A stretch of DNA of 64,000 bases from Bacillota bacterium (GTDB taxonomy: Bacteria > Bacillota > Clostridia > Caldicoprobacterales > Xylanivirgaceae): assembly GCA_023621995.1 (NCBI GenBank), contig JAMOAB010000005.1, positions 97,190 through 161,189 on the forward strand, in the 5' to 3' direction. Shown piece after piece: positions 26,266 through 41,656 of this stretch (positions within the stretch are counted from its first letter, which is position 1; each line of letters begins with the position of its first letter). Both the position numbers and the translations under genes were made by a program. The notes beneath the pieces are model-generated. The model searched no databases and was not told the DNA's origin. It saw only the letters and a list, made by a program, of their open reading frames with translations.

Positions 26266-27138
26266 CTATACTTCGTTCCATATCCTCCGAACATTGTCCA
26301 TGCCGATTTTAGATCCAACCTTACAGTCTTCCATACCTTCAAATTCTATGGATATATAGCCATCGTATCCCGAATCCTTTATCATCTTCACTGCCTGCCA
26401 TACATCTATATCTCCATGACCTATTATAGAACCCCTCAGATAGGTTCCATGGTTACTTCTAAACCAATCACCTTCACCAGGATCCCTGTAAGATGGTCGT
26501 ATATAGAAGTCCTTAAAGTGTACCATTACTGTATATGGTAAATTCTTCTTTACTCCAACTAGAGGATCTTCATCTACACAGAGAAAATTACCGACGTCAA
26601 GGGTAGTCTTGAAGTTTGGCCTATCTACAGCATTTAAAAGTGCCTGAACTCTGTCACTTCCATTTACATAGAATCCATGATTTTCTATTGTGGTTGTAAT
26701 TCCATACTGATCAGCATAGTCTGCAATCTTAGTACAGGCATCTACCATTTTAGAAAAATCTCTTTGGAAATTGGCAATTATATTTTCTTCAGGAGGTCTA
26801 GAAAAGGCTGATACATCATGACGCATCAACTTTACACCAAGTTTGTTTGCTATGTCTACATGGGTACAAATTCGCTCTATCTCTTTTTTATATGCGTCTT
26901 CATCTTCTTGGATTACATTTGCAAGTATTGCATAATTTGATATCTCAATACCTACTTCATCTGCCTTTTCCCTTATGGCATCTATCAATTGATCATTGTC
27001 TACAAGGTCGAATCCGAAGGGGACAATTTCCACGTGTTCTCCTCCATTTTCACCAATCCATTGAATTGCCTCAAGGACATCCATTTCTCCTCCCCTTATG
27101 AGTCTAACCAGACTATAAGTACTAAGTCCAACTTTCAT
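26266..27138 (-). CDS. Sugar phosphate isomerase/epimerase-family TIM-barrel protein
   Basis: A 290-residue barrel. Metal-site strands are TTIENHGFYVNGSDRVQ, FKTTLDVGNFL, MVHFKDFYI and YISIEFEGMED. It is close in pattern to the 12800 gene. It is the last gene of the fucose-type operon, 53 bases after fucI, and could be a mutarotase- or epimerase-like helper for the same sugar. The link to fucose is by position only. Confidence 0.82.
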   Translation of the reverse strand: MKVGLSTYSLVRLIRGGEMDVLEAIQWIGENGGEHVEIVPFGFDLVDNDQLIDAIREKADEVGIEISNYAILANVIQEDEDAYKKEIERICTHVDIANKLGVKLMRHDVSAFSRPPEENIIANFQRDFSKMVDACTKIADYADQYGITTTIENHGFYVNGSDRVQALLNAVDRPNFKTTLDVGNFLCVDEDPLVGVKKNLPYTVMVHFKDFYIRPSYRDPGEGDWFRSNHGTYLRGSIIGHGDIDVWQAVKMIKDSGYDGYISIEFEGMEDCKVGSKIGMDNVRRIWNEV

Positions 27139-27191
27139 AGTATAACACTCCTATTCTTCTATTTTTCCTATATTTATAAGTTTTAATTGCT

Positions 27192-29003
27192 TTATCTCCT
27201 ACCATATAAGGGGCCATAAGTCTGACATGCTCTAAAGTCAGCACCCTCCAAATCTGCTGTTCCAAATGCACTCCAAGCCGATGGTCTGAAGATTCTGTCT
27301 TCCGATACATTATGCATATTCACAGGAATTCTGAGCATAGATGCTAGTGTAATGAGTTTATCTCCTATATGACCATAGCTTATAGCACCATGGTTTGCAC
27401 CCCAGTTATTCATAACAGAATATACATCCTTAAATGCACCTTTGCCAGTAAGTATTGGAGTAAACCAAGTGGTAGGCCAGGTAGGATCAGTACGTTCATT
27501 TAAGATATCATGTACGTCCTTAGGTAGATCTATGGTATAACCCTCTGCTATTTGTAATACTGGACCCAAGCCCTTTATTATATTGACCCTAGACATAGTA
27601 ACTGGCATACCACCCCTAGTTAAGAAGTTCGATGAAAATCCTCCTCCACGAAAATACTCTCTATTTGCAGGACGCCAACTTGTAGCTTTTAGACATCGGT
27701 CCACTTCTTCTGGTGTTATCTCCCAAAATGGTTTCATAGCCGGCTTTCCATCCCTAGTCTGCTGTCCCGTTCCATCCAAAGTAGTGGAACCGGAATTTAT
27801 CAAATGGATAAAGCCTTGACTAGCCATACCTTCTATCTCTTTACCTGTCACCCTCTTCACCGCTTCAGGGCTCCAGTATGTCCTGACATCAGAAAATATT
27901 TGAGCAGTGTCAGAGAGCAAATGTCCAAACAGCATTGCAACACCATTTAAGGAGTCATTTTCCGTAGCTATCAAAAAAGGTTCCCTTATTCCATTCCAGT
28001 CAAAGGAAGAATTTAGTATTGCCTCTAGAAAATCTCCATTTGGGAAATGATCGGTCCATTGTCTCTGTCCTTGGAAACCAGCTAGTATGGCATTATGGCC
28101 CAGGGCCTCTTCTCCAAAACCAAGTTCTTCAAGCTTAGGGTTGCCAATCATAAGATCTCTGGCTATGATGGCCATCTTGACTACAAATTCCCACTCTTGA
28201 TCCTTTCTCTCCCTCGAAGCCTGATTTTCAGGTTTGTTGTTATCGGCACCCTCTATACAGTTTGCCCTTGTCCATTCAAGGGCACGCTTAAACTCAGCCT
28301 TATCGTATATTTCTTCATCCATACGCCTTATAAATTCAGTAGAATCTACAGATTCGAACCGCATTCCTAGATAGTCTTCTAAAAAATCTGGATTTACTAT
28401 AGAACCTGCTATTCCCATGGCCATACTACCCATCTGAAGATATGATTTACCCCTCATAGTGGCAACAGCTAGACCTGCTTTAGCAAACAACAATAGCTTT
28501 TCTTGCACATCTTTGGGTATTTCGGTATCATTTGCATCCTGTACATCCCTACCATATATGCCAAAGGCAGGCAATCCCTTTTGGTCATGTGCCGCTAATG
28601 CAGCTGCCAAATATACTGCTCCTGGACGTTCTGTGCCATTAAACCCCCATATAGCCTTTGGAGTTAGTGGATCCATATCAAGGGTCTCTGAACCATAGCA
28701 CCAACAAGGAGTCACTGTAATGGATACTCCTACACCTTCCCTTGCAAATTTTTCAGCTGTTTGTGCTGCTTCGGCTACGCCTCCTATACAGGTATCAGCA
28801 ATCACGCATTCTATTGGAAGACCATTTGCATGTCTTAGGTTGTCTTCTAACAACTTTGCCACAGCCTTCGCCATGCCCATTGTCTGATTTTCTAGTGATT
28901 CTCTCACACCTTTGCGCCTACCGTCAATAGCCGGCCTTATGCCGATCTTAGGCATATTCCCTTTAAGTCTATTTGTCAGACTGCTCTGCTCTATATTTGC
29001 CAT
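27192..29003 (-). CDS. fucI: L-fucose/D-arabinose isomerase
   Basis: About 603 residues, the normal length for FucI. Motifs are [20 protein letters not shown] at the N-terminus, the [19 protein letters not shown] region carrying the active-site Glu and metal-binding Asp, and [15 protein letters not shown] holding the C-terminal His. The enzyme converts L-fucose to L-fuculose with Mn2+. The ATG at 29003 is chosen since GGAGGGG sits upstream; the track start is inside that site. A 179-base gap to fucA contains two direct repeats and may hold a second promoter. Confidence 0.94.
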
Positions 29004-29130
29004 CCTTAACCCCTCCAACCCATATTTTTAATTTCGTTAATACTACTCTTATGTAGATTGCACACACAACCGTCTAATATATTGAACTATTTTACCTGTA
29101 TACTTAAATAATATAATAAATATGCGTATG

Positions 29131-29161
29131 TTTTAATGGAGTTTTGTGCTATTTTAATGGA
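29131..29161. promoter_or_regulatory. Direct repeat upstream of fucI, putative DeoR site
   Basis: TTTTAATGGA occurs twice with a 21-base period (29131-29140 and 29152-29161), separated by GTTTTGTGCTA. The GTTTTGTG core recurs just downstream of the operon promoter at 32182-32189. Two helical turns of spacing fits a regulator dimer or tetramer. Assignment to the operon's DeoR protein is inference. Confidence 0.45.
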
Positions 29162-29182
29162 TTTTTATGCTCTGCATGTCTA

Positions 29183-29830
29183 TCAGACATCCATCTTCCT
29201 CTTCAATTCATATAGGGCCTTAACCTGTTTTTCATCTAGAGTTTTAGGATCGCCTAGCATCTCGCATAAAAACGTTATCTTTGCCAAAAACTCTAGCGAT
29301 TCCATCTTATGATATGCACTTTCTAACTCCAATCCATATGTCAGTGCACCGTGATTTTGCAGTAACATGGCATCATAATCTTGTAAATATTCAGATATGG
29401 CATCGGGTATCTCATCTGTTGATGGTGTACCATATTTAGCCACTGGCACTGAACCTAATAGTAGAACCGATTCTGGTATGAGTGCCTTATCTAGTGGCCT
29501 ATTCATCACTGCATAAGCAGTTCCAAATGGTGGATGAGCATGTACCACTGCATTCACATCTGTCCTCTCTTTATATATTCTAAGGTGCATCTTGATCTCA
29601 GACGAAGGTCTATTTATACCATTTGTCTCTAAAGTTTCACCTTCCATATTGACTTTACATATCATATCAGGAGTCATAAAGCCTTTGCTTACACCTGTAG
29701 GTGTACAGAGAACCCCATTCCTATCTATCTTAACTGATATATTTCCATCATTGGCTGCTACATAGCCTCTATTATAAATTCTCTTACCTATTTCACATAT
29801 CTCTCTTCTAACTTTATCTTCATCAAACAT
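29183..29830 (-). CDS. fucA: Class II aldolase, L-fuculose-1-phosphate aldolase type
   Basis: About 215 residues, matching FucA. Zinc ligands are the HAHPPFG pair and LLQNHGALTYG; the catalytic Glu is in RPSSEIKMHL. It splits L-fuculose-1-phosphate into dihydroxyacetone phosphate and L-lactaldehyde. The preferred start is the ATG at 29830 after AGAGGTGG; the track used a GTG three codons earlier. It sits between the DeoR regulator and fucI. L-ribulose- or rhamnulose-phosphate aldolase is the alternative, but fucI next door favours fuculose. Confidence 0.88.
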   Translation of the reverse strand: MFDEDKVRREICEIGKRIYNRGYVAANDGNISVKIDRNGVLCTPTGVSKGFMTPDMICKVNMEGETLETNGINRPSSEIKMHLRIYKERTDVNAVVHAHPPFGTAYAVMNRPLDKALIPESVLLLGSVPVAKYGTPSTDEIPDAISEYLQDYDAMLLQNHGALTYGLELESAYHKMESLEFLAKITFLCEMLGDPKTLDEKQVKALYELKRKMDV

Positions 29831-29879
29831 ATGTGCCACCTCTCATATAATAATTTTTCATACATATGACTCATTTGCG

Positions 29880-30641
29880 TCAACTATATATAACGTCTAT
29901 ATCCTTTTCACGGAAAAATTGCTCCCATTCCCCGGAAAGCTTTTTGTCTGTAAATATACAATCTATATTATTAAAATCTGTAATGTCTATAAACGACATC
30001 TTATCAAATTTAGTGTTGTCAGTTAAAAGATAGGTCTTCTGTGCTCTTTCCACCATACTCCTCTTTACATAGGCTTCCATATCGTTAGACTCTAAAATAC
30101 CCTTATCCATGTGAATGGCCTTACAAGATATAATAGTCTTATCTACATGATAACTTTCTATAGTTCTTTCTGATATATATCCTACAAAAGAATAAGATGA
30201 ATGTCTTAGATCGCCACCTGTGCATATCACCCTCACATTGTGGGCATTGCCAAGTTCTAATATCATATTTACTGAGTTTGTAATAACCGTTATATTATCC
30301 TTTTCTTTTATATATTTAGCTAATTGGAGCGCCGTTGAGCTAGAGTCTATCATTAGCGTGTCTCCGTCTTCTATAAATTCTGCCACCTTTGAAGCTATAG
30401 CTTTCTTTGCCTCTTTATTTGTTATCTCCCTTACACCAAAGGGTAAGTCAATACTTATGCTCTCGCTTAAAACTGCCCCACCATAGGTTCTCTTAATAAG
30501 ACCCTCCTTTTCCAGTTTCTCCAGATCCCTTCGTATAGTTTCCTCCGTAACACCAAATTGCCTACTTAAGTCTGAAACCAACACTCTTTTTTGATTCTGT
30601 AAAATGTTTACTATCTTACTTCTTCTCTCAATTGCTAACAT
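29880..30641 (-). CDS. DeoR/GlpR-family transcriptional regulator
   Basis: A 253-residue regulator. The N-terminal winged helix-turn-helix (VSDLSRQFGVTEETIRRDLEKL) is followed by a phosphosugar-binding DeoR C-domain from about residue 75 (GDTLMIDSSSTALQLAKYI). DeoR repressors usually sense a phosphorylated intermediate, here plausibly fuculose-1-phosphate. The gene lies 18 bases after the kinase and before fucA, so it is autoregulated with the operon. Confidence 0.92.
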   Translation of the reverse strand: MLAIERRSKIVNILQNQKRVLVSDLSRQFGVTEETIRRDLEKLEKEGLIKRTYGGAVLSESISIDLPFGVREITNKEAKKAIASKVAEFIEDGDTLMIDSSSTALQLAKYIKEKDNITVITNSVNMILELGNAHNVRVICTGGDLRHSSYSFVGYISERTIESYHVDKTIISCKAIHMDKGILESNDMEAYVKRSMVERAQKTYLLTDNTKFDKMSFIDITDFNNIDCIFTDKKLSGEWEQFFREKDIDVIYS

Positions 30642-30659
30642 TTGACACCACCTATACCA

Positions 30660-32078
30660 CTATGGACTATATCTCTTAATATCAAAAGAATTTTCAATTA
30701 TAATTCTACCCTCTTTTATCCCTTCTATATATCCCCCTGAAATAAACTGGATGAGACTATTCCCTATGGTAGAAGCCTCTATAGGACCTGCCACTACTTT
30801 TCTTTCTGTGGCACTCGCCGTCATCTGGCATAGTAAGGTATCTTGTATTCCCCCTCCTACCATATTTATGGTCTCTACCTCTAGTCCTGATATAGCTTCA
30901 AGTTCATCCAATGTCTTTTTGTACTTGGCCACCAGACCATTGTATGCTGCTATAGCAATCTCACCAAGCCCTTTTGGTTCGCCCTGCCCATGTTCTATGC
31001 AATATCTAACAATCTCCTCTGTCATGACATGGGGAGCCATAAATCGAGGATTCTCAGGATCTATTGAAAAATGGGTATATTCAGCTCCCTCTACGGCCTC
31101 TATTATATCAGTAAATGACACCCTGCCTTCCCTCTGGCTCCAAACTCTTCTAATCTCTTGTATAATCCAAAGACCATTTATATTTTTAAGTAACCTAATA
31201 GTACCATCTACCCCACCTTCGTTCGTAAAGTTTAAATCATAGGATCTATGATTTATTATGGGACTTTCCACCTCCAAACCAAGTAGCGACCATGTACCAC
31301 AGCTTAGATAGGCATTTTCCCTACTGTGTAATGGGGTGCCAGCTACAGCAGAAGCAGTGTCATGGGATGCTACCGCTATAACTGGAATGTCCGATAGACC
31401 TACTTCTTGCCTTATATCTTCTCTGAGGTATCCATATATCTCTCCTGGATTTATAATAGGACTAAATATATGTTGGGGAAGCCCAAGTGTGGATATTAGA
31501 TCCCAATCCCAATTTCTCTCCTTAACATTTAATAGCTGGGAAGTTGATGCTATGGTATACTCGCTATACTTTTCACCTGTTAAAAAATAATTAAATAGAT
31601 CTGGCATAAAGAGTAAACTATCGGCACTTTCTAATATTCTAGGTCTAATGGTTTTGTCTGAAAATAGTTGATACATGGTATTTATAGGCATTTTCTGAAT
31701 ACCTGTCTTTTTATAGATTTCATCAAAGGAGACTACTTCTTCGACAGAATGTACTGCACTGGCAGTCCTGTCATCCCTATAGTGTATAGGAGTGCCTATT
31801 AAATTTCCGTCTTGATCCAATAGCCCATAGTCTACCCCCCAAGTATCCACACCTATACTTACTATGTTTTCCCCTTTTTTAACTGCCATCTTCAAACCTT
31901 CAATGATTTCACTATATAATCCGAGAAAATTCCAATATAGTCTATCTCCTAGCTTTATAGGCTGGTTAGGAAACCTATAGATCTCCTCAAGTTCGATACG
32001 TTTTCCATCAAACTTTGACAATATAACCCTTCCACTCGATGCACCTAAATCTATGGCTATACAAGAAACCATGTTCAT
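30660..32078 (-). CDS. FGGY-family rhamnulokinase-type sugar kinase
   Basis: A 472-residue kinase with the ASKHA ATP-binding elements IAIDLGASSGRV, IGVDTWGVDYGLLD, VASHDTASAVAGTP, YLSCGTWSLLG and VGGGIQDTLLCQ. Sequence style is RhaB-like. Next to fucI and fucA it most likely phosphorylates L-fuculose, replacing FucK. First gene of the operon, behind a recognisable promoter with a 120-base leader. Rhamnulose as the true substrate cannot be ruled out, but no rhamnose isomerase is present. Confidence 0.9.
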   Translation of the reverse strand: MNMVSCIAIDLGASSGRVILSKFDGKRIELEEIYRFPNQPIKLGDRLYWNFLGLYSEIIEGLKMAVKKGENIVSIGVDTWGVDYGLLDQDGNLIGTPIHYRDDRTASAVHSVEEVVSFDEIYKKTGIQKMPINTMYQLFSDKTIRPRILESADSLLFMPDLFNYFLTGEKYSEYTIASTSQLLNVKERNWDWDLISTLGLPQHIFSPIINPGEIYGYLREDIRQEVGLSDIPVIAVASHDTASAVAGTPLHSRENAYLSCGTWSLLGLEVESPIINHRSYDLNFTNEGGVDGTIRLLKNINGLWIIQEIRRVWSQREGRVSFTDIIEAVEGAEYTHFSIDPENPRFMAPHVMTEEIVRYCIEHGQGEPKGLGEIAIAAYNGLVAKYKKTLDELEAISGLEVETINMVGGGIQDTLLCQMTASATERKVVAGPIEASTIGNSLIQFISGGYIEGIKEGRIIIENSFDIKRYSP

Positions 32079-32359: not shown

Positions 32360-32402
32360 CAAAAAAGAGAGTACTTGATGAAAAAATATCAAATACTCTC
32401 TT
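32360..32402 (-). terminator. Rho-independent terminator after the SGNH hydrolase
   Basis: Stem AGAGAGTA-TTGAT / ATCAA-TACTCTCT with one mismatch and an eight-base loop. TTTTTT follows on the minus strand. Confidence 0.88.
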
Positions 32403-32414
32403 TCATATTATAAA

Positions 32415-33437
32415 CTATTTCTTCAATATCCCTTCTAAAACGGAATAAATCTTCTTTGCCATATATAACATACCTATATCAGCAGGATGGACATTATCTA
32501 CCGTACAAGCATGGGCTATGGATGGATCAAAGAATTCATAGCCGTCTATGAAGTATACATTTTTATCCCCAGCATCCTTCGCCCTTTTAAAAGTCTCATA
32601 TATTATCTCTCTTCTCTCGTCCCTTTCACTATAATCATTCTTATCCATTGGGTGATGATAATAGGGAGCAGTCACAAATACCACTGGAACCTCAGGCTGT
32701 CTTGCACGTACGATCTTAAAAAATGGTTCATGGGTATTTAAAAGGTGTCTAGGGTCTGGAGCATTGTAGTCATAGTCCATTACAAATACGCCCATATTCA
32801 TAGAGGCTATAATGTCTGCCATTTCTCTCTCGCCCTTTGCACTACCACTAAATCCAAGGTTTACAAAGTTTGCATCTAACCACCTGCTTACCGTATGGGT
32901 ATATGTGTTCCCTGGGCGTGATGCACATGCACCCTGAGTTATGGATGATCCATAATAAACTATTGGTTTACCAATGGTAAAAGGAGTTGGTGGAAGAACC
33001 TCAGCCTCTTCCGCCAATCCAATTTCTATATAGTCTATACCTGAATATATGGGAAGATACATGGTCCATTCCCGCCATGTTTTGTCTAACCTCTGCCCTA
33101 TCTCCCCTTCAAACTCCCACGTATTATATTCAGGATATATATTCCCATAAAAGGTCTTATTCGCTCCTTCTCCTATATAAAAGTCGAACCCACATAATGC
33201 TGTCATTGGCATATTAGGATGTAAATAGCAAGGTTTTAGCTTTACTTTTAACCGTATCCTGTCAGAATTGGTCTTAAACCTTACCATTCCTCCAGATGTA
33301 TGCCAAGCTAAATTTTGTATACTCTCTGAAAGTAGGTTCAAGGAGTTCACAGGTAGCCGACATAGACCGTGGTTTTGATCTAACCATTGAAATCCTGATA
33401 ATGCAAAAGGTTCTTCTGTTATATTATAATATTTCAA
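32415..33437 (-). CDS. SGNH/GDSL-type esterase with N-terminal jelly-roll domain
   Basis: A 340-residue protein. Residues 1-145 form the beta-rich N-terminal domain seen in this SGNH subgroup (CGFDFYIGEGANKTFYGN). The catalytic domain has block I YYGSSITQGACAS with the Ser, the oxyanion Gly in NLGFSGSA, and the DNVHPADIG block with Asp and His. It likely removes acetyl or other acyl groups from sugars. There is no signal peptide. The start is TTG after AAGGTG. It is the last of three genes with an FAD oxidoreductase and a six-hairpin protein. Confidence 0.85.
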   Translation of the reverse strand: MKYYNITEEPFALSGFQWLDQNHGLCRLPVNSLNLLSESIQNLAWHTSGGMVRFKTNSDRIRLKVKLKPCYLHPNMPMTALCGFDFYIGEGANKTFYGNIYPEYNTWEFEGEIGQRLDKTWREWTMYLPIYSGIDYIEIGLAEEAEVLPPTPFTIGKPIVYYGSSITQGACASRPGNTYTHTVSRWLDANFVNLGFSGSAKGEREMADIIASMNMGVFVMDYDYNAPDPRHLLNTHEPFFKIVRARQPEVPVVFVTAPYYHHPMDKNDYSERDERREIIYETFKRAKDAGDKNVYFIDGYEFFDPSIAHACTVDNVHPADIGMLYMAKKIYSVLEGILKK

Positions 33438-33464
33438 TTTTTACACCTTCTTTTATTATAAAGA

Positions 33465-35030
33465 TTACACTCTAGGCCAACTAAGTTCTACACCATGTCT
33501 TTGAAGCAAGGCTTGAAAATCTTCTAAGTTTGATTTATCATTCCTAACTGCTCTAGGTGATAAGCCCTTGTCCAAAGCGTAGGATACTAGCATCCCTGCA
33601 GCCTCACCTATGTTCCACTCCACTGGATGTAGTCTATATGAACCATTTGTAATATGAGTAGTACCTATATTTTTACATGCTGGAATGAGGTTTTCCATCC
33701 TTATGGGTATGAGGCTGCCAAGTGGTATCTGGAATGGTAGACAGTCTATATCTATATAGTTTCTGCCTCCAGTGCTAGGATGAAGATCCATTCGATAGTA
33801 TCCTATGCCTACGGTATCTTCAAACTCCATGGCACCCTTATCTTCCCTAGTAATAGGGCTTATATACTGCTCTAACACAGTAAACTCTGCCTTTATACGC
33901 CTTGACTCTCTTATATAAGGATACATGGCAAGACCATCCTCTGTGCCTACCACATCTTTTCTCAGTCTAAGCCCTGGATAACCTATACCTCCATCAGGCC
34001 TTGGTGCTTCTGTTTGCATCCAGTAGAGATATGAGAGACTCAGCTGCCTTGCCCCTTCTAAATGTTTTTCTACCTCTTCTTCATCTACTTCATAGATAGG
34101 CCCTAGCCAATAGTCATTTTGGGGCCAATTGGCTATTGTAATATCGCTTTCAAATGTACCAGGTACAAAATTGTTCTTATCTGCAATACGACGATATGTC
34201 CATAGGGAATGCCTCTCATCTACTGGGAAGAGGGTATGCTCACGCTCCTCCAATGTATGGGGATGACAACTCTTCCAGCTAAGCAGTGAGTCGGGCCAGA
34301 AATCACATCTATAGTTTTTCCAAAACTCATACTGCTCTGGTTTTTCTATAGTATGGTCCTCCCCCTCTATATAGTCGATGGCAAAGCACCATGTAATTGA
34401 CTGTATATCTAAAGGATCTGCCTCCCCATCTAGTGCATGGGGTTCACCTGTCTCTTTCTTAGATTCAGACCCAGTCACATATTCAGCGCCAGCCAATGGC
34501 AACACATCTCCACATTCAGTGGCATCTAGAAAATAGTGGCCTGTAAGTACTTTTTCATCGCCTGTATCTATATTCTTCACTGTGACAGAGATCACACGAT
34601 CTCCATCTGTCTCCACATCTTGTATCTTATGCCTTGTCCATATTGTAAGTTGACTGCTAAGTGTATAGGGCGCCATCATCTCGTATAGTACTGCCACAGC
34701 CACTCTAGGATCGTGACACAATCTGCTCACTCCGCCATTTCCAGGATTTAAATAAAAGGCCTGCCTTGCCTCTGGGGTAAGTGGAAAATGATTTTTATAA
34801 TATGAACGTATACCATCTCGAAGCCTTCTATAGCTCATAGTACAACCAAACTTCTCTATCCATGGATTTTCATCTGGTGGCACAGCTTGACTAGTTAGCT
34901 GCCCACCTACCCATCTAGTCTCTTCAGTCATTATGACCTTTTTGCCCATACGGGATGCAGCAATGGCAGCTGCACATCCACCTAGGCCTCCACCTATTAT
35001 GACTATATCTGCACTATATTCTCTTCCCAA
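33465..35030 (-). CDS. FAD-dependent oxidoreductase
   Basis: A 521-residue flavoprotein. The dinucleotide-binding VIIGGGLGGCAAAIAASRMG starts near residue 9, and EETRWVGGQLTSQ follows, the signature of the FAD_oxidored group often found beside polysaccharide-degrading genes. The C-terminus has PACKNIGTTHITNGSYRLHP and WNIGEAAG for flavin contact. Probably oxidises a carbohydrate or related alcohol in the cytoplasm; the substrate is unknown. The start is TTG after GGGAGGG. It lies 27 bases upstream of the SGNH gene and 110 after the six-hairpin gene. Confidence 0.85.
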   Translation of the reverse strand: MGREYSADIVIIGGGLGGCAAAIAASRMGKKVIMTEETRWVGGQLTSQAVPPDENPWIEKFGCTMSYRRLRDGIRSYYKNHFPLTPEARQAFYLNPGNGGVSRLCHDPRVAVAVLYEMMAPYTLSSQLTIWTRHKIQDVETDGDRVISVTVKNIDTGDEKVLTGHYFLDATECGDVLPLAGAEYVTGSESKKETGEPHALDGEADPLDIQSITWCFAIDYIEGEDHTIEKPEQYEFWKNYRCDFWPDSLLSWKSCHPHTLEEREHTLFPVDERHSLWTYRRIADKNNFVPGTFESDITIANWPQNDYWLGPIYEVDEEEVEKHLEGARQLSLSYLYWMQTEAPRPDGGIGYPGLRLRKDVVGTEDGLAMYPYIRESRRIKAEFTVLEQYISPITREDKGAMEFEDTVGIGYYRMDLHPSTGGRNYIDIDCLPFQIPLGSLIPIRMENLIPACKNIGTTHITNGSYRLHPVEWNIGEAAGMLVSYALDKGLSPRAVRNDKSNLEDFQALLQRHGVELSWPRV

Positions 35031-35140
35031 GAAAAACCCTCCCTTAATTAGTTGCTTTTATTATGATATTTTATAATTATTCAAGTTCAATACGAAAAAT
35101 ATTAGTATGCCAGCTTGAATAGTCTCATAGATAAGTTCAA

Positions 35141-37042
35141 TTAATAAAAACTTACAAGCTCATCACTTAAGAGACCCGACATAAGTCCAGAGACTATTTC
35201 TGCCACAGTCCAACCCGATTCAATAGACCAAGGCCCCCAACCTATATCATAGGGACTTGCAAACACTTCCATGAGTTCTACATCCATAGCTCTTGTCCAG
35301 CCACCATCTAATTTCTTATCGTCACTACGAAGTTGAACACTTATCATAAACTTGGCTATATCCTGCCACAAGTTTTTAAAATAATTATCTTCTGTTATGA
35401 AATATGCCTGCATAAATGCCATAGGTAGCCAATTTACGGAATATAACATATCTACAACCGGATCGCCATTTTTAGTAAGGAGAGAACATTCTCCATCCTC
35501 ATTCCTGCTCATGGTAGCCTTATAGCCTTCATCCCACTCTACATAAGCACCTGAGTCATGTCTGTACGCCTGTAGATCTTCTACTACCGTATATAGAAAA
35601 TCCTTGTGGCCCTCCTCTCCAGTCACCCAGTATAGAAAAGCAGATGGCATGATAAGCCTACATAACTCCTGGGTCTGGCTGTGTTCCCTCACAGTGTCTG
35701 GATACACCGACATAATACTTTCCATACCCTTAATGCCTACATCTTTAAATTTTTCAATATCAGTCAACTTATATGCCAAAAGAAGCGTGGCAAGATAATA
35801 GGCATTATAATGGGCAGATGGAAAACCACCTGGGCTATTCCTTAGCTCTTCCATCTTCTCAAAGGTTAGACTAATATTGTCTGTCCTCTGAACCCTGAGG
35901 CCATCGGTGCCTGTAGTATCTACAAGAAAATTCAGTGCATCTATGCAATTGTCTAGATAGCTCTTGTCTTCTAAATAGAGACTTTTAAATAGATATGGCA
36001 TTATAGCCCTTGCAACATCATCCTGATAGCATACACCCCAACCCTCATTAGACCATCTTACCATGCCCTTATATGTGCCCTCTTTTATTTGGAAAAAATC
36101 AAAACATGCCTTTGTCAAATTATCTGATATCTCGAGATAAGCACTATCACCCTCCAATAAGTAGTAAAACATAAATGCCATAGAAGTCTCACCTATACAG
36201 TCTGCCCGTATATTAGTGAGTATCTGCTGCTTACCATCAGGATATATCTCTGAACCTATACCCTCTAATACTCCCATCTTACCTTTATCTAACAATATTC
36301 CAGCGTCATAGAACCAATTCATGCCCCTATCGATGCTAGCACGTATGCTGCTTTCAAAATCATGGCTACAACCACTTAATCTATAATACTTAGGAATATC
36401 ACCCAAGCTTACCTCATCTTCACATAGCCATTCAATTATGTATTTAACAAGCCCTATCCATTTCTTCCTTGGTGCAAACCTGGCCTTTAGAAAATTTGAA
36501 AGTCTAAAACAACATACAAGGAGGTTGGGCTTGTCAAACCAAAGTGCACGATTGGCTGGATCATTTCTAAACTCATTGTCCACTTCTGTATTAGAATGGG
36601 CTTTTATGTATTCAGCATACTGAAGTATTGGCTCTCCTCCTTCATGCTCATAATATGCTCCTATTCGCATATTATGTTGATCATCTAATATATCACCCAT
36701 GTTTAGACCTGATATGGAATCAGAATCTTGACAAAATACTAGCCGTTCCTTCTTAGTAGATTTAGGTGGCGAAAAGTAGAGCTCCGATATGCTCGATACA
36801 TATTCACAAAACACCTTTCCTCCCCTGTCTATGAACTCATCTATTACTATCCTATCTGTAGGATGGAACATAAGCGGTCTATCTGATACACCACCTAGTA
36901 TGGCAATAGAATGAAAATCCTGTAAATTGGTGTTTGAAACTTCATCTGGTTTTACGACATGCAATTTAATATCCGAATCTAATAATAGTTCTAAAAGATC
37001 ACTATTACTCTCCGTCACTACTAGTAGTGATTTTTTTCCCAT
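35141..37042 (-). CDS. Two-domain protein: GATase-like N-terminus and six-hairpin (alpha/alpha) C-terminus
   Basis: About 633 residues. Residues 1-210 look like a glutamine-amidotransferase-like flavodoxin fold (AILGGVSDRPLMFHPTDR, FIDRGGKVFCEY) of the kind in uncharacterised sugar-acting proteins. Residues 230-630 read as an alpha/alpha toroid with repeated amphipathic helices (IGETSMAFMFYYLLEGDSAY, YQDDVARAIMPYLF, GGFPSAHYNAYYLATLLLAY), as in six-hairpin glycosidases. No catalytic pair can be assigned with confidence. The ATG at 37042 follows GGGAGGT; the track start lies inside that site. First gene of the FAD-SGNH operon. I do not recognise a named family. Confidence 0.7.
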   Translation of the reverse strand: MGKKSLLVVTESNSDLLELLLDSDIKLHVVKPDEVSNTNLQDFHSIAILGGVSDRPLMFHPTDRIVIDEFIDRGGKVFCEYVSSISELYFSPPKSTKKERLVFCQDSDSISGLNMGDILDDQHNMRIGAYYEHEGGEPILQYAEYIKAHSNTEVDNEFRNDPANRALWFDKPNLLVCCFRLSNFLKARFAPRKKWIGLVKYIIEWLCEDEVSLGDIPKYYRLSGCSHDFESSIRASIDRGMNWFYDAGILLDKGKMGVLEGIGSEIYPDGKQQILTNIRADCIGETSMAFMFYYLLEGDSAYLEISDNLTKACFDFFQIKEGTYKGMVRWSNEGWGVCYQDDVARAIMPYLFKSLYLEDKSYLDNCIDALNFLVDTTGTDGLRVQRTDNISLTFEKMEELRNSPGGFPSAHYNAYYLATLLLAYKLTDIEKFKDVGIKGMESIMSVYPDTVREHSQTQELCRLIMPSAFLYWVTGEEGHKDFLYTVVEDLQAYRHDSGAYVEWDEGYKATMSRNEDGECSLLTKNGDPVVDMLYSVNWLPMAFMQAYFITEDNYFKNLWQDIAKFMISVQLRSDDKKLDGGWTRAMDVELMEVFASPYDIGWGPWSIESGWTVAEIVSGLMSGLLSDELVSFY

Positions 37043-37103
37043 GTAGCTACCTCCCATACTATTATTTCAATCCAGTATATTCTCTATTTGTCTGTATGAC
37101 TAT

Positions 37104-37132
37104 ATTATAGTAGTACATGAATGAACTGTAAA
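37104..37132 (-). promoter_or_regulatory. Sigma-A promoter of the six-hairpin/FAD/SGNH operon
   Basis: TTTACA, 17 bases, TATAAT on the minus strand, about 60 bases before the start codon. Confidence 0.75.
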
Positions 37133-37173: not shown

Positions 37174-38187
37174 TTAAACTACATCATTTTCTTTGCCATA
37201 TGAGCTATAACGCTCCAATGCACTATTAATTACTGAATATATGAGTCCTTCATATCCTATTCCGGCAGCTTCTGCCATCTTAGTTATGTCACTATATCCC
37301 CTAACTAAGCCTGGTAGTGAATTTATCTCTAGCACATAGGGTACTCCATTTTTTAGCCTTATATCTACCCTACCATAATCCTTTATATCTAGTGCATTAT
37401 AGGCCCTTTTTGCCGTATCCACAATTTGCTTCTCTAGTTCATTATCTAAGGTAGCTGGACATATATCTTCTGACCTATACCCATCATAGTGGCATTTAAG
37501 CTCAAAACTACTAAACTTAGGTAGATGATCAGGAAGGTTATCATAACTTATCTCCAATATTGGAAGTGTCTGCATATCATTCCTGTAACCTAGCACACCT
37601 ACTGTAAACTCTCTCCCGTCTATATATTCATTTATCATAATAGGTGGATTATAGATTTTTAGCTCTTCTTTGACCTTTTTTCTTAGGGATTCTATTTCAT
37701 ATACTAAACTGTCTTGGTGTATTCCCCTGCTCGAACCTTCATCGGCAGGTTTTATAATTACTGGAAAGTCCATATCTTCTTCTAATTTGTCTAAATCTGC
37801 TTCCTCATAGATTGATAAAAAATTAGGCGTATTTATCCCCTTACTCTTAAATATTCTAGAAGAGACGGCCTTATTTATGGATAGAGTGTGTCCTAGTATT
37901 GAAGAACCTGTGTAGGGAATATTAAAAAATTCTAATATGGCAGGTATTTGGGCCAATCTGGTCTCCCCCCTGATACCATTACATAGGTTGAACACCATAT
38001 CTACCTGCTCTTTTTGCAGTTTTAATATAAAATTACTATCGGCTGTTACCACTATACATTTAAACCTTTTTGAGATAACCTCTTGTACATCCCTTACCAC
38101 TTTCCGTTTTTGTATATCTTCCCTCTTTCCTTCTTCACCTGGTAAATAATTTTTTCTTGGTTGGTCTATCAATATAGCTATCTTCAT
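37174..38187 (-). CDS. ATP-grasp ligase, D-alanine-D-alanine ligase-like
   Basis: A 337-residue ATP-grasp protein. Visible elements are the NIPYTGSSILGHTLSINKAVS region, IIKPADEGSSRGI (nucleotide loop), INEYIDGREFTVGVLG and YGRVDIRLKNGVPYVLEINSLPGL with the Mg2+ ligands. The C-terminal half matches Ddl well. The N-terminus lacks the GGxSxEHxVS motif of true Ddl and instead reads ILIDQPRKNYLPGEEGKRED. It may make another dipeptide-like bond or be a divergent Ddl. It stands between two unrelated transcription units with a GGGAGG site and a possible promoter in 38236-38262. Confidence 0.78.
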   Translation of the reverse strand: MKIAILIDQPRKNYLPGEEGKREDIQKRKVVRDVQEVISKRFKCIVVTADSNFILKLQKEQVDMVFNLCNGIRGETRLAQIPAILEFFNIPYTGSSILGHTLSINKAVSSRIFKSKGINTPNFLSIYEEADLDKLEEDMDFPVIIKPADEGSSRGIHQDSLVYEIESLRKKVKEELKIYNPPIMINEYIDGREFTVGVLGYRNDMQTLPILEISYDNLPDHLPKFSSFELKCHYDGYRSEDICPATLDNELEKQIVDTAKRAYNALDIKDYGRVDIRLKNGVPYVLEINSLPGLVRGYSDITKMAEAAGIGYEGLIYSVINSALERYSSYGKENDVV

Positions 38188-40546: not shown

Positions 40547-41656
40547 ATGACAAAAGCAATTAGATTTATAGATCCTATAGATGGAGTTATGGTAAGTAAT
40601 GCTGCAGGTAAGCTACACAATGATTCCCTTAAAATTGAGGTTTCCCTAGATGCATACCCAGGTAGGCATATCTCGGTAAACGGTGTTCATACCATTTATA
40701 GAAATGGAGCTTACAGAGCCACCGTTAGCTTAAATTCATATAAAAATACACTTGAAGCAGTGGATACAGAGACAGGGGCGAAGGAGACGATTAGGGTCTA
40801 TTGGCTTAAAAACGCCGATAAAAAGTATAGATTGATGCTCGATGACAATATATGGTGTCTACAAGATATTGCAAGGAATGCCGACAGTTATAAATCCATA
40901 TTCGAAAACCCATATCTAGGATTTTTTAAGGATGTCCATGATCAATTTGGTACCAAAGTACATATGCATATCTACTATCAATGCCCTGAATTCGGTGGTT
41001 TCAACTTATCACAGATGCCAGATAAATATAGAGATGAATGGCAGACAAATTCAGATTGGCTACGTCTAACATTTCACGCTGATCAGAATCTGCCAGATAG
41101 ACCATATGTAAATGTTGGATATGATCAGATGAAGTACGAACATGAACGTGTGATTAGCGAAATTAAACGTTTTGCAGGTGAAGAGGTCTTAAGCCCAGTC
41201 ACCACAATACACTGGGCAGAAGTTACAAAAGAAGGATGCCACGCCCTTAAGGAACAAGGCGTCTGTGTGCTCACCGATCACGGTTTTCGCCTTCTTGATG
41301 ATGGAACATTTGGGGAGACTGAAGAAGATTATATTGTATATTATCTATCAGATGAGCAAGTGCAAACAGCTTTAACTTATGGCTTTTATAAAGATCATTC
41401 AGAAGACATTATCTTTTGTCCAGATGCTATAGTATTAAATTCTTATACCCCACAAGAAATACGTAAACTTTTAGACGCATCTTTGGACAACTACCCTAAA
41501 AAAAGTTATGTAGGGCTATTAATTCATGAACAATATTTTTATCCCCACTATGTTAACTATTTACCCGACTATAAAGAACGGGTTTTGGCAGGAGTAGAGT
41601 GGTGTATAGAACATAACTATGAATCTTCATTTGTTAAAGATTTTGTGTTTGAATAA
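40547..41656 (+). CDS. Uncharacterised protein, possible polysaccharide-deacetylase-like fold
   Basis: A 369-residue plus-strand gene with AAGGAGG and a strong terminator. The first 100 residues look beta-rich (DGVMVSNAAGKLHNDSLKIE). From about 105 a deacetylase-like pattern appears: RLMLDDNIWCLQDIA with paired Asp, LRLTFHADQN, then TTIHWAEVTKEGCHALKEQG and a C-terminal VGLLIHEQYFYPHY. These recall the TxDD, H-containing and hydrophobic blocks of NodB-like enzymes but are not canonical. No signal peptide. I do not recognise a named family; a carbohydrate-related role is inferred from fold hints only. Confidence 0.6.
   Translation: MTKAIRFIDPIDGVMVSNAAGKLHNDSLKIEVSLDAYPGRHISVNGVHTIYRNGAYRATVSLNSYKNTLEAVDTETGAKETIRVYWLKNADKKYRLMLDDNIWCLQDIARNADSYKSIFENPYLGFFKDVHDQFGTKVHMHIYYQCPEFGGFNLSQMPDKYRDEWQTNSDWLRLTFHADQNLPDRPYVNVGYDQMKYEHERVISEIKRFAGEEVLSPVTTIHWAEVTKEGCHALKEQGVCVLTDHGFRLLDDGTFGETEEDYIVYYLSDEQVQTALTYGFYKDHSEDIIFCPDAIVLNSYTPQEIRKLLDASLDNYPKKSYVGLLIHEQYFYPHYVNYLPDYKERVLAGVEWCIEHNYESSFVKDFVFE

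What the first reader, a model, noticed from the sequence alone, without database searches (positions are those of the whole stretch)
32415..37132. Three-gene operon of unknown pathway: GATase/six-hairpin fusion, FAD oxidoreductase, SGNH esterase
One promoter and one terminator enclose three enzymes that are rarely discussed together. The 633-residue first protein joins a flavodoxin/GATase-like domain to an alpha/alpha toroid without an obvious catalytic pair. Together they could deacylate, oxidise and cleave an unusual sugar inside the cell. This is my best candidate for an undescribed system in the window.
Basis: partly seen in the sequence, partly recalled or inferred. Interest (0 to 1): 0.6.

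Follow-up and report, generated by a model that had tools for sequence, protein, structure and literature searches.

The report
Uncharacterised sugar-breakdown gene cassette
Three neighbouring bacterial genes, each from an enzyme family with no member of known function that I could find, sit beside fucose/rhamnose-sugar breakdown genes and probably strip, oxidise and cut an imported decorated sugar; the exact trio was found only here, but its pairs recur in other genomes.

Summary
The three genes are real and correctly placed: GATtor 37042-35141, FADox 35030-33465, SGNH 33437-32415, all on the minus strand. A promoter-like site precedes them and a strong 17-bp terminator follows. The first protein is a well-predicted fusion of a cysteine-less GATase1-like domain and an (alpha/alpha)6 toroid. 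It matches no Pfam, NCBIfam or PDB family by sequence.

In the genomes and records sampled, the exact trio occurs only here. Its pairs recur: FADox-SGNH beside rhamnose isomerase and a GH106-like gene in a same-family genome; GATtor and FADox within 15 kb in 8 of 22 cases in Bacilli-dominated genomes (0.2 expected), and adjacent in Mesobacillus. FADox also stands alone with a CUT1 sugar transporter and LacI in other phyla. A fucose-type catabolic operon lies directly downstream.

Best reading: a cytosolic catabolic cassette for an imported, possibly acylated, deoxyhexose-containing glycoside, with interchangeable parts, not a fixed novel system. GATtor is the interesting part: a widespread family found in no library searched. 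Substrate and chemistry are unproven.

The parts
35141..37042 (-). GATtor: 633-aa protein; residues 1-225 cysteine-less GATase1/flavodoxin-like domain, 229-633 (alpha/alpha)6 toroid; no signal peptide apparent
   Evidence: ORF and RBS; no Pfam/NCBIfam/PDB sequence match; AF2 pLDDT 93.5; Foldseek; invariant residues
33465..35030 (-). FADox: 521-aa FAD-dependent oxidoreductase of PF12831, Rossmann GxGxxG near N-terminus
   Evidence: PF12831 E 5.5e-104; 28-sequence alignment across phyla, 48-86% identity to the window protein
32415..33437 (-). SGNH: 340-aa GxDLY + Lipase_GDSL_3 carbohydrate-esterase-like protein, catalytic S165/G198/N225/D314/H317 intact
   Evidence: PF14607, PF14606; PDB 4lhs E 2.6e-37; conserved residues in 33 homologues
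37104..37132 (-). promoter-like site TTTACA-17-TATAAT
   Evidence: 11/12; number of sites in region not above shuffles
32363..32404 (-). intrinsic terminator, 17-bp stem plus T-run
26266..32078 (-). adjacent 6-deoxyhexose catabolic genes: RhaB-type kinase 32078-30660, DeoR 30641-29880, class II aldolase 29839-29183, L-fucose isomerase 29018-27192, TIM-barrel isomerase 27138-26266; separate transcription unit, probable functional partner
   Evidence: FucI over both equivalog cut-offs; kinase 489.8 bits against a cut-off of 528 for rhamnulokinase

Best explanation
A cytosolic catabolic cassette for an imported, decorated glycoside or short oligosaccharide, in this genome most likely one that yields a 6-deoxyhexose (L-fucose/L-rhamnose type). 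Proposed steps: (1) a sugar ABC transporter elsewhere in the genome imports the compound [inferred]; (2) SGNH removes an O-acyl group (S165/D314/H317) [family-level inference]; (3) FADox oxidises a sugar hydroxyl with FAD [family-level inference; position unknown]; (4) GATtor, with invariant D281/D341/D342/D531/D599 and H411 presumed to line the toroid mouth, breaks the glycosidic bond by hydrolysis or elimination, its GATase-like domain being structural or substrate-closing rather than a glutaminase [inferred from fold and conservation]; (5) the released deoxysugar enters the adjacent isomerase-kinase-aldolase operon [inferred from adjacency]. The three genes are modules that assort in pairs among catabolic clusters, not a fixed system.
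For: Genes, domains, fold. Invariant active-site-like residues in GATtor; intact SGNH catalytic residues. Deoxyhexose context: window FucI/aldolase/RhaB-type kinase; G003 RhaA - GH106-like - FADox - SGNH - PfkB; G028 FADox 2.4 kb from a FucI homologue that is next to DUF4838. GATtor-FADox linkage: 8 of 22 GATtor copies within 15 kb of a FADox v 0.2 expected if placed at random; adjacent in Mesobacillus with Gfo/Idh, NanE, ROK kinase and an alpha/beta hydrolase; both present in 3 of 5 FADox-positive class genomes against 15 of 291 for GATtor (p 0.001; 0.012 without the window's genome). Transporter context: BPD_transp_1 and SBP are the commonest GATtor neighbours; FADox with CUT1 ABC and LacI in Deinococcus, Allomeiothermus, Thalassospira, Rhizobium, Streptomyces, Sinorhizobium. 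FADox next to esterases of different kinds: partly circular because several seeds came from those loci.
Against: No locus other than the window has all three adjacent. Most FADox copies (34 of 39 Bacilli loci) have no GATtor or SGNH nearby, and in several phyla FADox seems to be the only enzyme in its transporter operon, so it need not depend on the other two. GATtor's own neighbours elsewhere (NanE, AGE epimerase, GH89, DUF4855) point to amino-sugar or mannose-type glycans as much as deoxyhexoses. No transporter adjoins the trio in the window. Linkage in related genomes is not independent (three Cohnella, several Paenibacillus).
Confidence: 0.5

Rival explanations
1. FADox and SGNH form the functional unit (deacylate then oxidise a free or imported deoxysugar derivative), and GATtor is an unrelated upstream gene that happens to share the stretch.
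For: FADox-SGNH are 27 nt apart and conserved in G003 without GATtor; the 110-nt gap to GATtor holds a weak promoter-like site; FADox-GDSL also adjacent in G055; FADox alone with a transporter in other phyla.
Against: GATtor-FADox co-localisation recurs in Paenibacillus, Cohnella and Mesobacillus, which chance does not explain; no terminator-like site was found between GATtor and FADox.
Confidence: 0.25
2. GATtor is a sugar epimerase/isomerase of the AGE (N-acetylglucosamine 2-epimerase) kind rather than a bond-cleaving enzyme, feeding an epimerised sugar to FADox.
For: Best Foldseek matches of the toroid are AGE, cellobiose 2-epimerase and YihS structures (3gt5 E 2.5e-9, TM 0.68 by target length); AGE and NanE epimerases are recurrent neighbours.
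Against: Only one His (H411) is invariant whereas AGE catalysis uses two (my own knowledge); profile comparison with an AGE protein gives 2% probability; the match is fold-level, 9-14% identity; an AGE gene next to GATtor argues for division of labour.
Confidence: 0.15
3. The genes act in remodelling of the cell's own surface glycans (the upstream ATP-grasp and GtrA-like genes hint at envelope functions), not in catabolism.
For: GtrA-like and D-Ala-D-Ala-ligase-like ATP-grasp genes lie upstream; in G006 the FADox is next to an acyltransferase-3 and an octopine-type dehydrogenase gene.
Against: Predicted cytosolic proteins; repeated transporter/regulator/isomerase context of GATtor and FADox; fucose catabolic operon immediately downstream.
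Confidence: 0.07

Closest known systems
AGE/cellobiose 2-epimerase and GH88/GH105/GH76 (alpha/alpha)6 barrel superfamily
   Same: Same toroid fold by Foldseek (3gt5, 3vw5, 3wiw, 4bok); invariant Asp at inner-helix N-termini, comparable with the conserved w.D motif of the GH88 family proteins collected here
   Different: No Pfam family over cut-off; hhalign probability 20% (GH88), 16% (GH127), 2% (AGE) on short generic stretches; extra GATase-like N-domain
GH42 trimerisation domain / ThuA-like / class I GATase domains
   Same: N-terminal domain fold (5e9a, 4e5v, 8khs)
   Different: No conserved catalytic Cys, so not a glutaminase; fused to a toroid instead of a TIM barrel
PF12831 FAD_oxidored family
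   Same: Full-length match E 5.5e-104
   Different: No characterised member or solved structure found; only the FAD-binding motif resembles solved flavoproteins
GxDLY/Lipase_GDSL_3 SGNH hydrolases (PDB 4lhs)
   Same: Both domains and catalytic residues
   Different: Nothing obvious; Lipase_GDSL_3 had no member of known function in a 2022 review (PMC9487903)
Oxidation-first glycoside breakdown (3-keto pathways, levoglucosan pathway PMC7676230)
   Same: Idea of oxidising a sugar before bond cleavage; Gfo/Idh genes recur near FADox
   Different: Those use NAD-dependent Gfo/Idh or GMC flavo-oxidases, not PF12831 (abstracts and my own knowledge); GATtor resembles no enzyme that I know from those pathways

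Membership tests
AGE/N-acylglucosamine 2-epimerase superfamily | (alpha/alpha)6 barrel fold | tested here: met
   Foldseek E 2.5e-9 to 3gt5
AGE/N-acylglucosamine 2-epimerase superfamily | sequence-profile relationship to AGE proteins | tested here: not met
   hhalign probability 2.1% against an annotated AGE protein (single sequence); no Pfam hit
AGE/N-acylglucosamine 2-epimerase superfamily | two essential histidines in the barrel | tested here: not met
   only H411 invariant, H479 in 28 of 31; the two-His requirement is from my own knowledge
GH88/GH105 unsaturated glucuronyl hydrolases | PF07470 match | tested here: not met
   no hit at E 10 with the window protein; hhalign 20% over 32 columns
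GH127 beta-L-arabinofuranosidases | PF07944 match over the domain | tested here: not met
   2 of 29 homologues hit weakly (best E 3.3e-4), window protein does not; hhalign 16%
Class I glutamine amidotransferases | conserved catalytic Cys in the GATase fold | tested here: not met
   no conserved Cys in the N-domain alignment although the fold matches
PF12831 FAD_oxidored | full-length profile match above gathering score | tested here: met
   349 bits v 27
PF12831 FAD_oxidored | bound FAD and redox activity | not testable with these tools
   needs purified protein
GxDLY/Lipase_GDSL_3 SGNH hydrolases | both domains above gathering score and catalytic Ser/Asp/His present | tested here: met
   101 v 27 and 132 v 27 bits; S165, D314, H317 conserved
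Conserved three-gene system | all three genes together in other genomes | tested here: not met
   no second adjacent trio among 30 GATtor neighbourhoods, 39 Bacilli and 4 clostridial FADox loci and the plasmid records read

The most novel reading that the evidence does not exclude
GATtor founds a new enzyme family: an intracellular (alpha/alpha)6 glycosidase or lyase with a GATase-like lid that cleaves sugars pre-oxidised by PF12831 flavoenzymes, making GATtor-FADox-esterase a flavin-based counterpart of the NAD-dependent 3-keto glycoside pathways.
Probability: 0.12. Interest if true: 0.7.

Novelty: new variant of a known kind. Interest (0 to 1): 0.4.

Why it matters
The GATtor family occurs in Bacilli, Clostridia and Bacteroidota with a highly conserved active-site-like set of residues, yet has no entry in Pfam, NCBIfam or, by sequence, the PDB. 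The partner flavoenzyme occurs in at least five phyla, often beside sugar transporters, with no activity that I could find described. Assigning either would annotate many sugar-utilisation loci now labelled hypothetical. The loci where one enzyme sits alone with a transporter (FADox in Deinococcus or Rhizobium) make the substrate question directly testable.

Tried and rejected
Trio as a conserved operon: rejected on adjacency. GATase (glutaminase) role for the N-domain: rejected, no conserved Cys. Filing GATtor under GH88, GH127 or AGE by profile: rejected. Weak hits PF06662 (E 0.06) and MORN in Pfam: treated as chance. PDB profile hits VapC6 and TRIM37: chance. Literature on PF12831 and on DUF4855 and DUF4838 as glycan-active families: nothing functional found. 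Searches on ThuA and on the 3-keto pathway gave nothing bearing on this protein. FADox-esterase enrichment counts are not used as proof because several seed sequences came from the same loci.

Full report
Observation. The number of promoter-like sites in the region does not exceed shuffles, so the promoter is plausible rather than shown.

What the proteins are. FADox is a full-length member of PF12831 (E 5.5e-104) and SGNH of PF14607+PF14606, with Ser165, Gly198, Asn225, Asp314 and His317 conserved in 33 homologues. By sequence only the FAD-binding region of FADox resembles solved proteins. SGNH resembles the uncharacterised structure 4lhs, and a 2022 review lists its family as having no member of known function (PMC9487903). 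GATtor has no Pfam or NCBIfam family and no meaningful PDB sequence match. An AlphaFold2 model from 29 homologues is confident (pLDDT 93.5, pTM 0.92). Its N-terminal 225 residues fold like GH42 trimerisation, ThuA-like and GATase domains but have no conserved cysteine. Its C-terminal 400 residues form an (alpha/alpha)6 toroid nearest AGE/cellobiose 2-epimerases, with GH88 and GH76 also matched, at 9-16% identity. Profile comparisons with GH88, GH127 and AGE proteins fail, so it is a separate family with a known fold.

Active site. Across 33 homologues down to about 25% identity, R279, D281, D341, D342, H411, R462, N525, D531, N537, R584 and D599 never vary. D281, D341/D342, H411 and N537 sit at the N-terminal ends of barrel helices, and R462 within the first turns of another, the usual location of catalytic residues in this fold (my own knowledge).

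Neighbourhood survey. GATtor homologues came from 26 genome-contig loci in Paenibacillus, Cohnella, Bacillus, Rossellomorea and clostridial MAGs, from clostridial genomes, and from Bacteroides and Mesobacillus records. None of the neighbourhoods contains all three genes adjacent. In G003, of the window's own family, FADox (86%) and SGNH (72%) are adjacent in a cluster RhaA - GH106-like - FADox - SGNH - PfkB, while GATtor (70%) is on another contig, near class II FBP-aldolase and Ldh_2 genes. In 20 genomes carrying GATtor, 8 of 22 copies lie within 15 kb of a FADox against 0.2 expected under random placement; the genomes are related, so the events are fewer than 8. In a sample of 291 class genomes FADox occurs in 5 and GATtor in 15, both in 3 (p 0.001, or 0.012 without the window's genome). 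In Mesobacillus the order is transporter - Gfo/Idh - NanE - ROK - GATtor - FADox - alpha/beta hydrolase. In B. finegoldii GATtor has a lipoprotein-like signal and lies in a polysaccharide utilisation locus with AGE, DUF4855, GH89 and GH3 genes, and a GxDLY SGNH lies about 15 kb away on the same record. FADox stands with a CUT1 sugar transporter and LacI as the apparent sole enzyme in Deinococcus, Allomeiothermus, Thalassospira, Rhizobium, Sinorhizobium and Streptomyces.

Interpretation. Transporters, LacI/AraC/ROK regulators and sugar isomerases around the homologues, plus the fucose-type operon immediately downstream in the window, make sugar catabolism the most likely setting. The deoxyhexose substrate rests on three order-level contexts only (window, G003, G028); elsewhere the context is often amino-sugar-like. 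The order of chemical steps is inference. FADox seems to pair repeatedly with esterases of different folds, which suggests an acylated substrate, but that count is partly circular.

Verdict. Not a fixed new system, but a modular catabolic cassette whose first gene represents a widespread, conserved family of unassigned function. Interest is moderate.

Noticed in passing
L015:202-972 (G000:C45): Truncated second GATtor-like fragment in the same genome, next to an AraC-type regulator and an ABC solute-binding protein gene: probably a decayed copy of a transporter-linked locus.
   Followed up: partly
L073:7090-11370 (G055:C37): Four tandem GxDLY SGNH esterase paralogues in one stretch.
   Followed up: no
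L072:8765-9793 (G003:C8): A second SGNH copy, 65% identical to the window's, is interrupted by an in-frame TAA.
   Followed up: no
L117, L118, L119, L121, L122, L124, L125, L126: PF12831 flavoenzyme as apparent sole enzyme in a CUT1 sugar ABC transporter operon, with LacI, in Deinococcota, Alphaproteobacteria and Actinomycetota.
   Followed up: yes
37174-38187: D-Ala-D-Ala-ligase-like ATP-grasp protein, well below the NCBIfam ligase cut-offs listed, upstream of the trio; its true substrate is unclear.
   Followed up: no
40547-41656: 369-aa protein with no Pfam or NCBIfam match.
   Followed up: no
L074:5571-6695 and 509-1576 (G028:C20): 62% homologue of the window's Gfo/Idh gene lies 4 kb from a GxDLY SGNH gene in another family of the order.
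   Followed up: no
L069:13432-17118 (G028:C103): FucI homologue (70%) directly next to a DUF4838 protein; DUF4838 also lies between FADox and GATtor in Paenibacillus L026.
   Followed up: no
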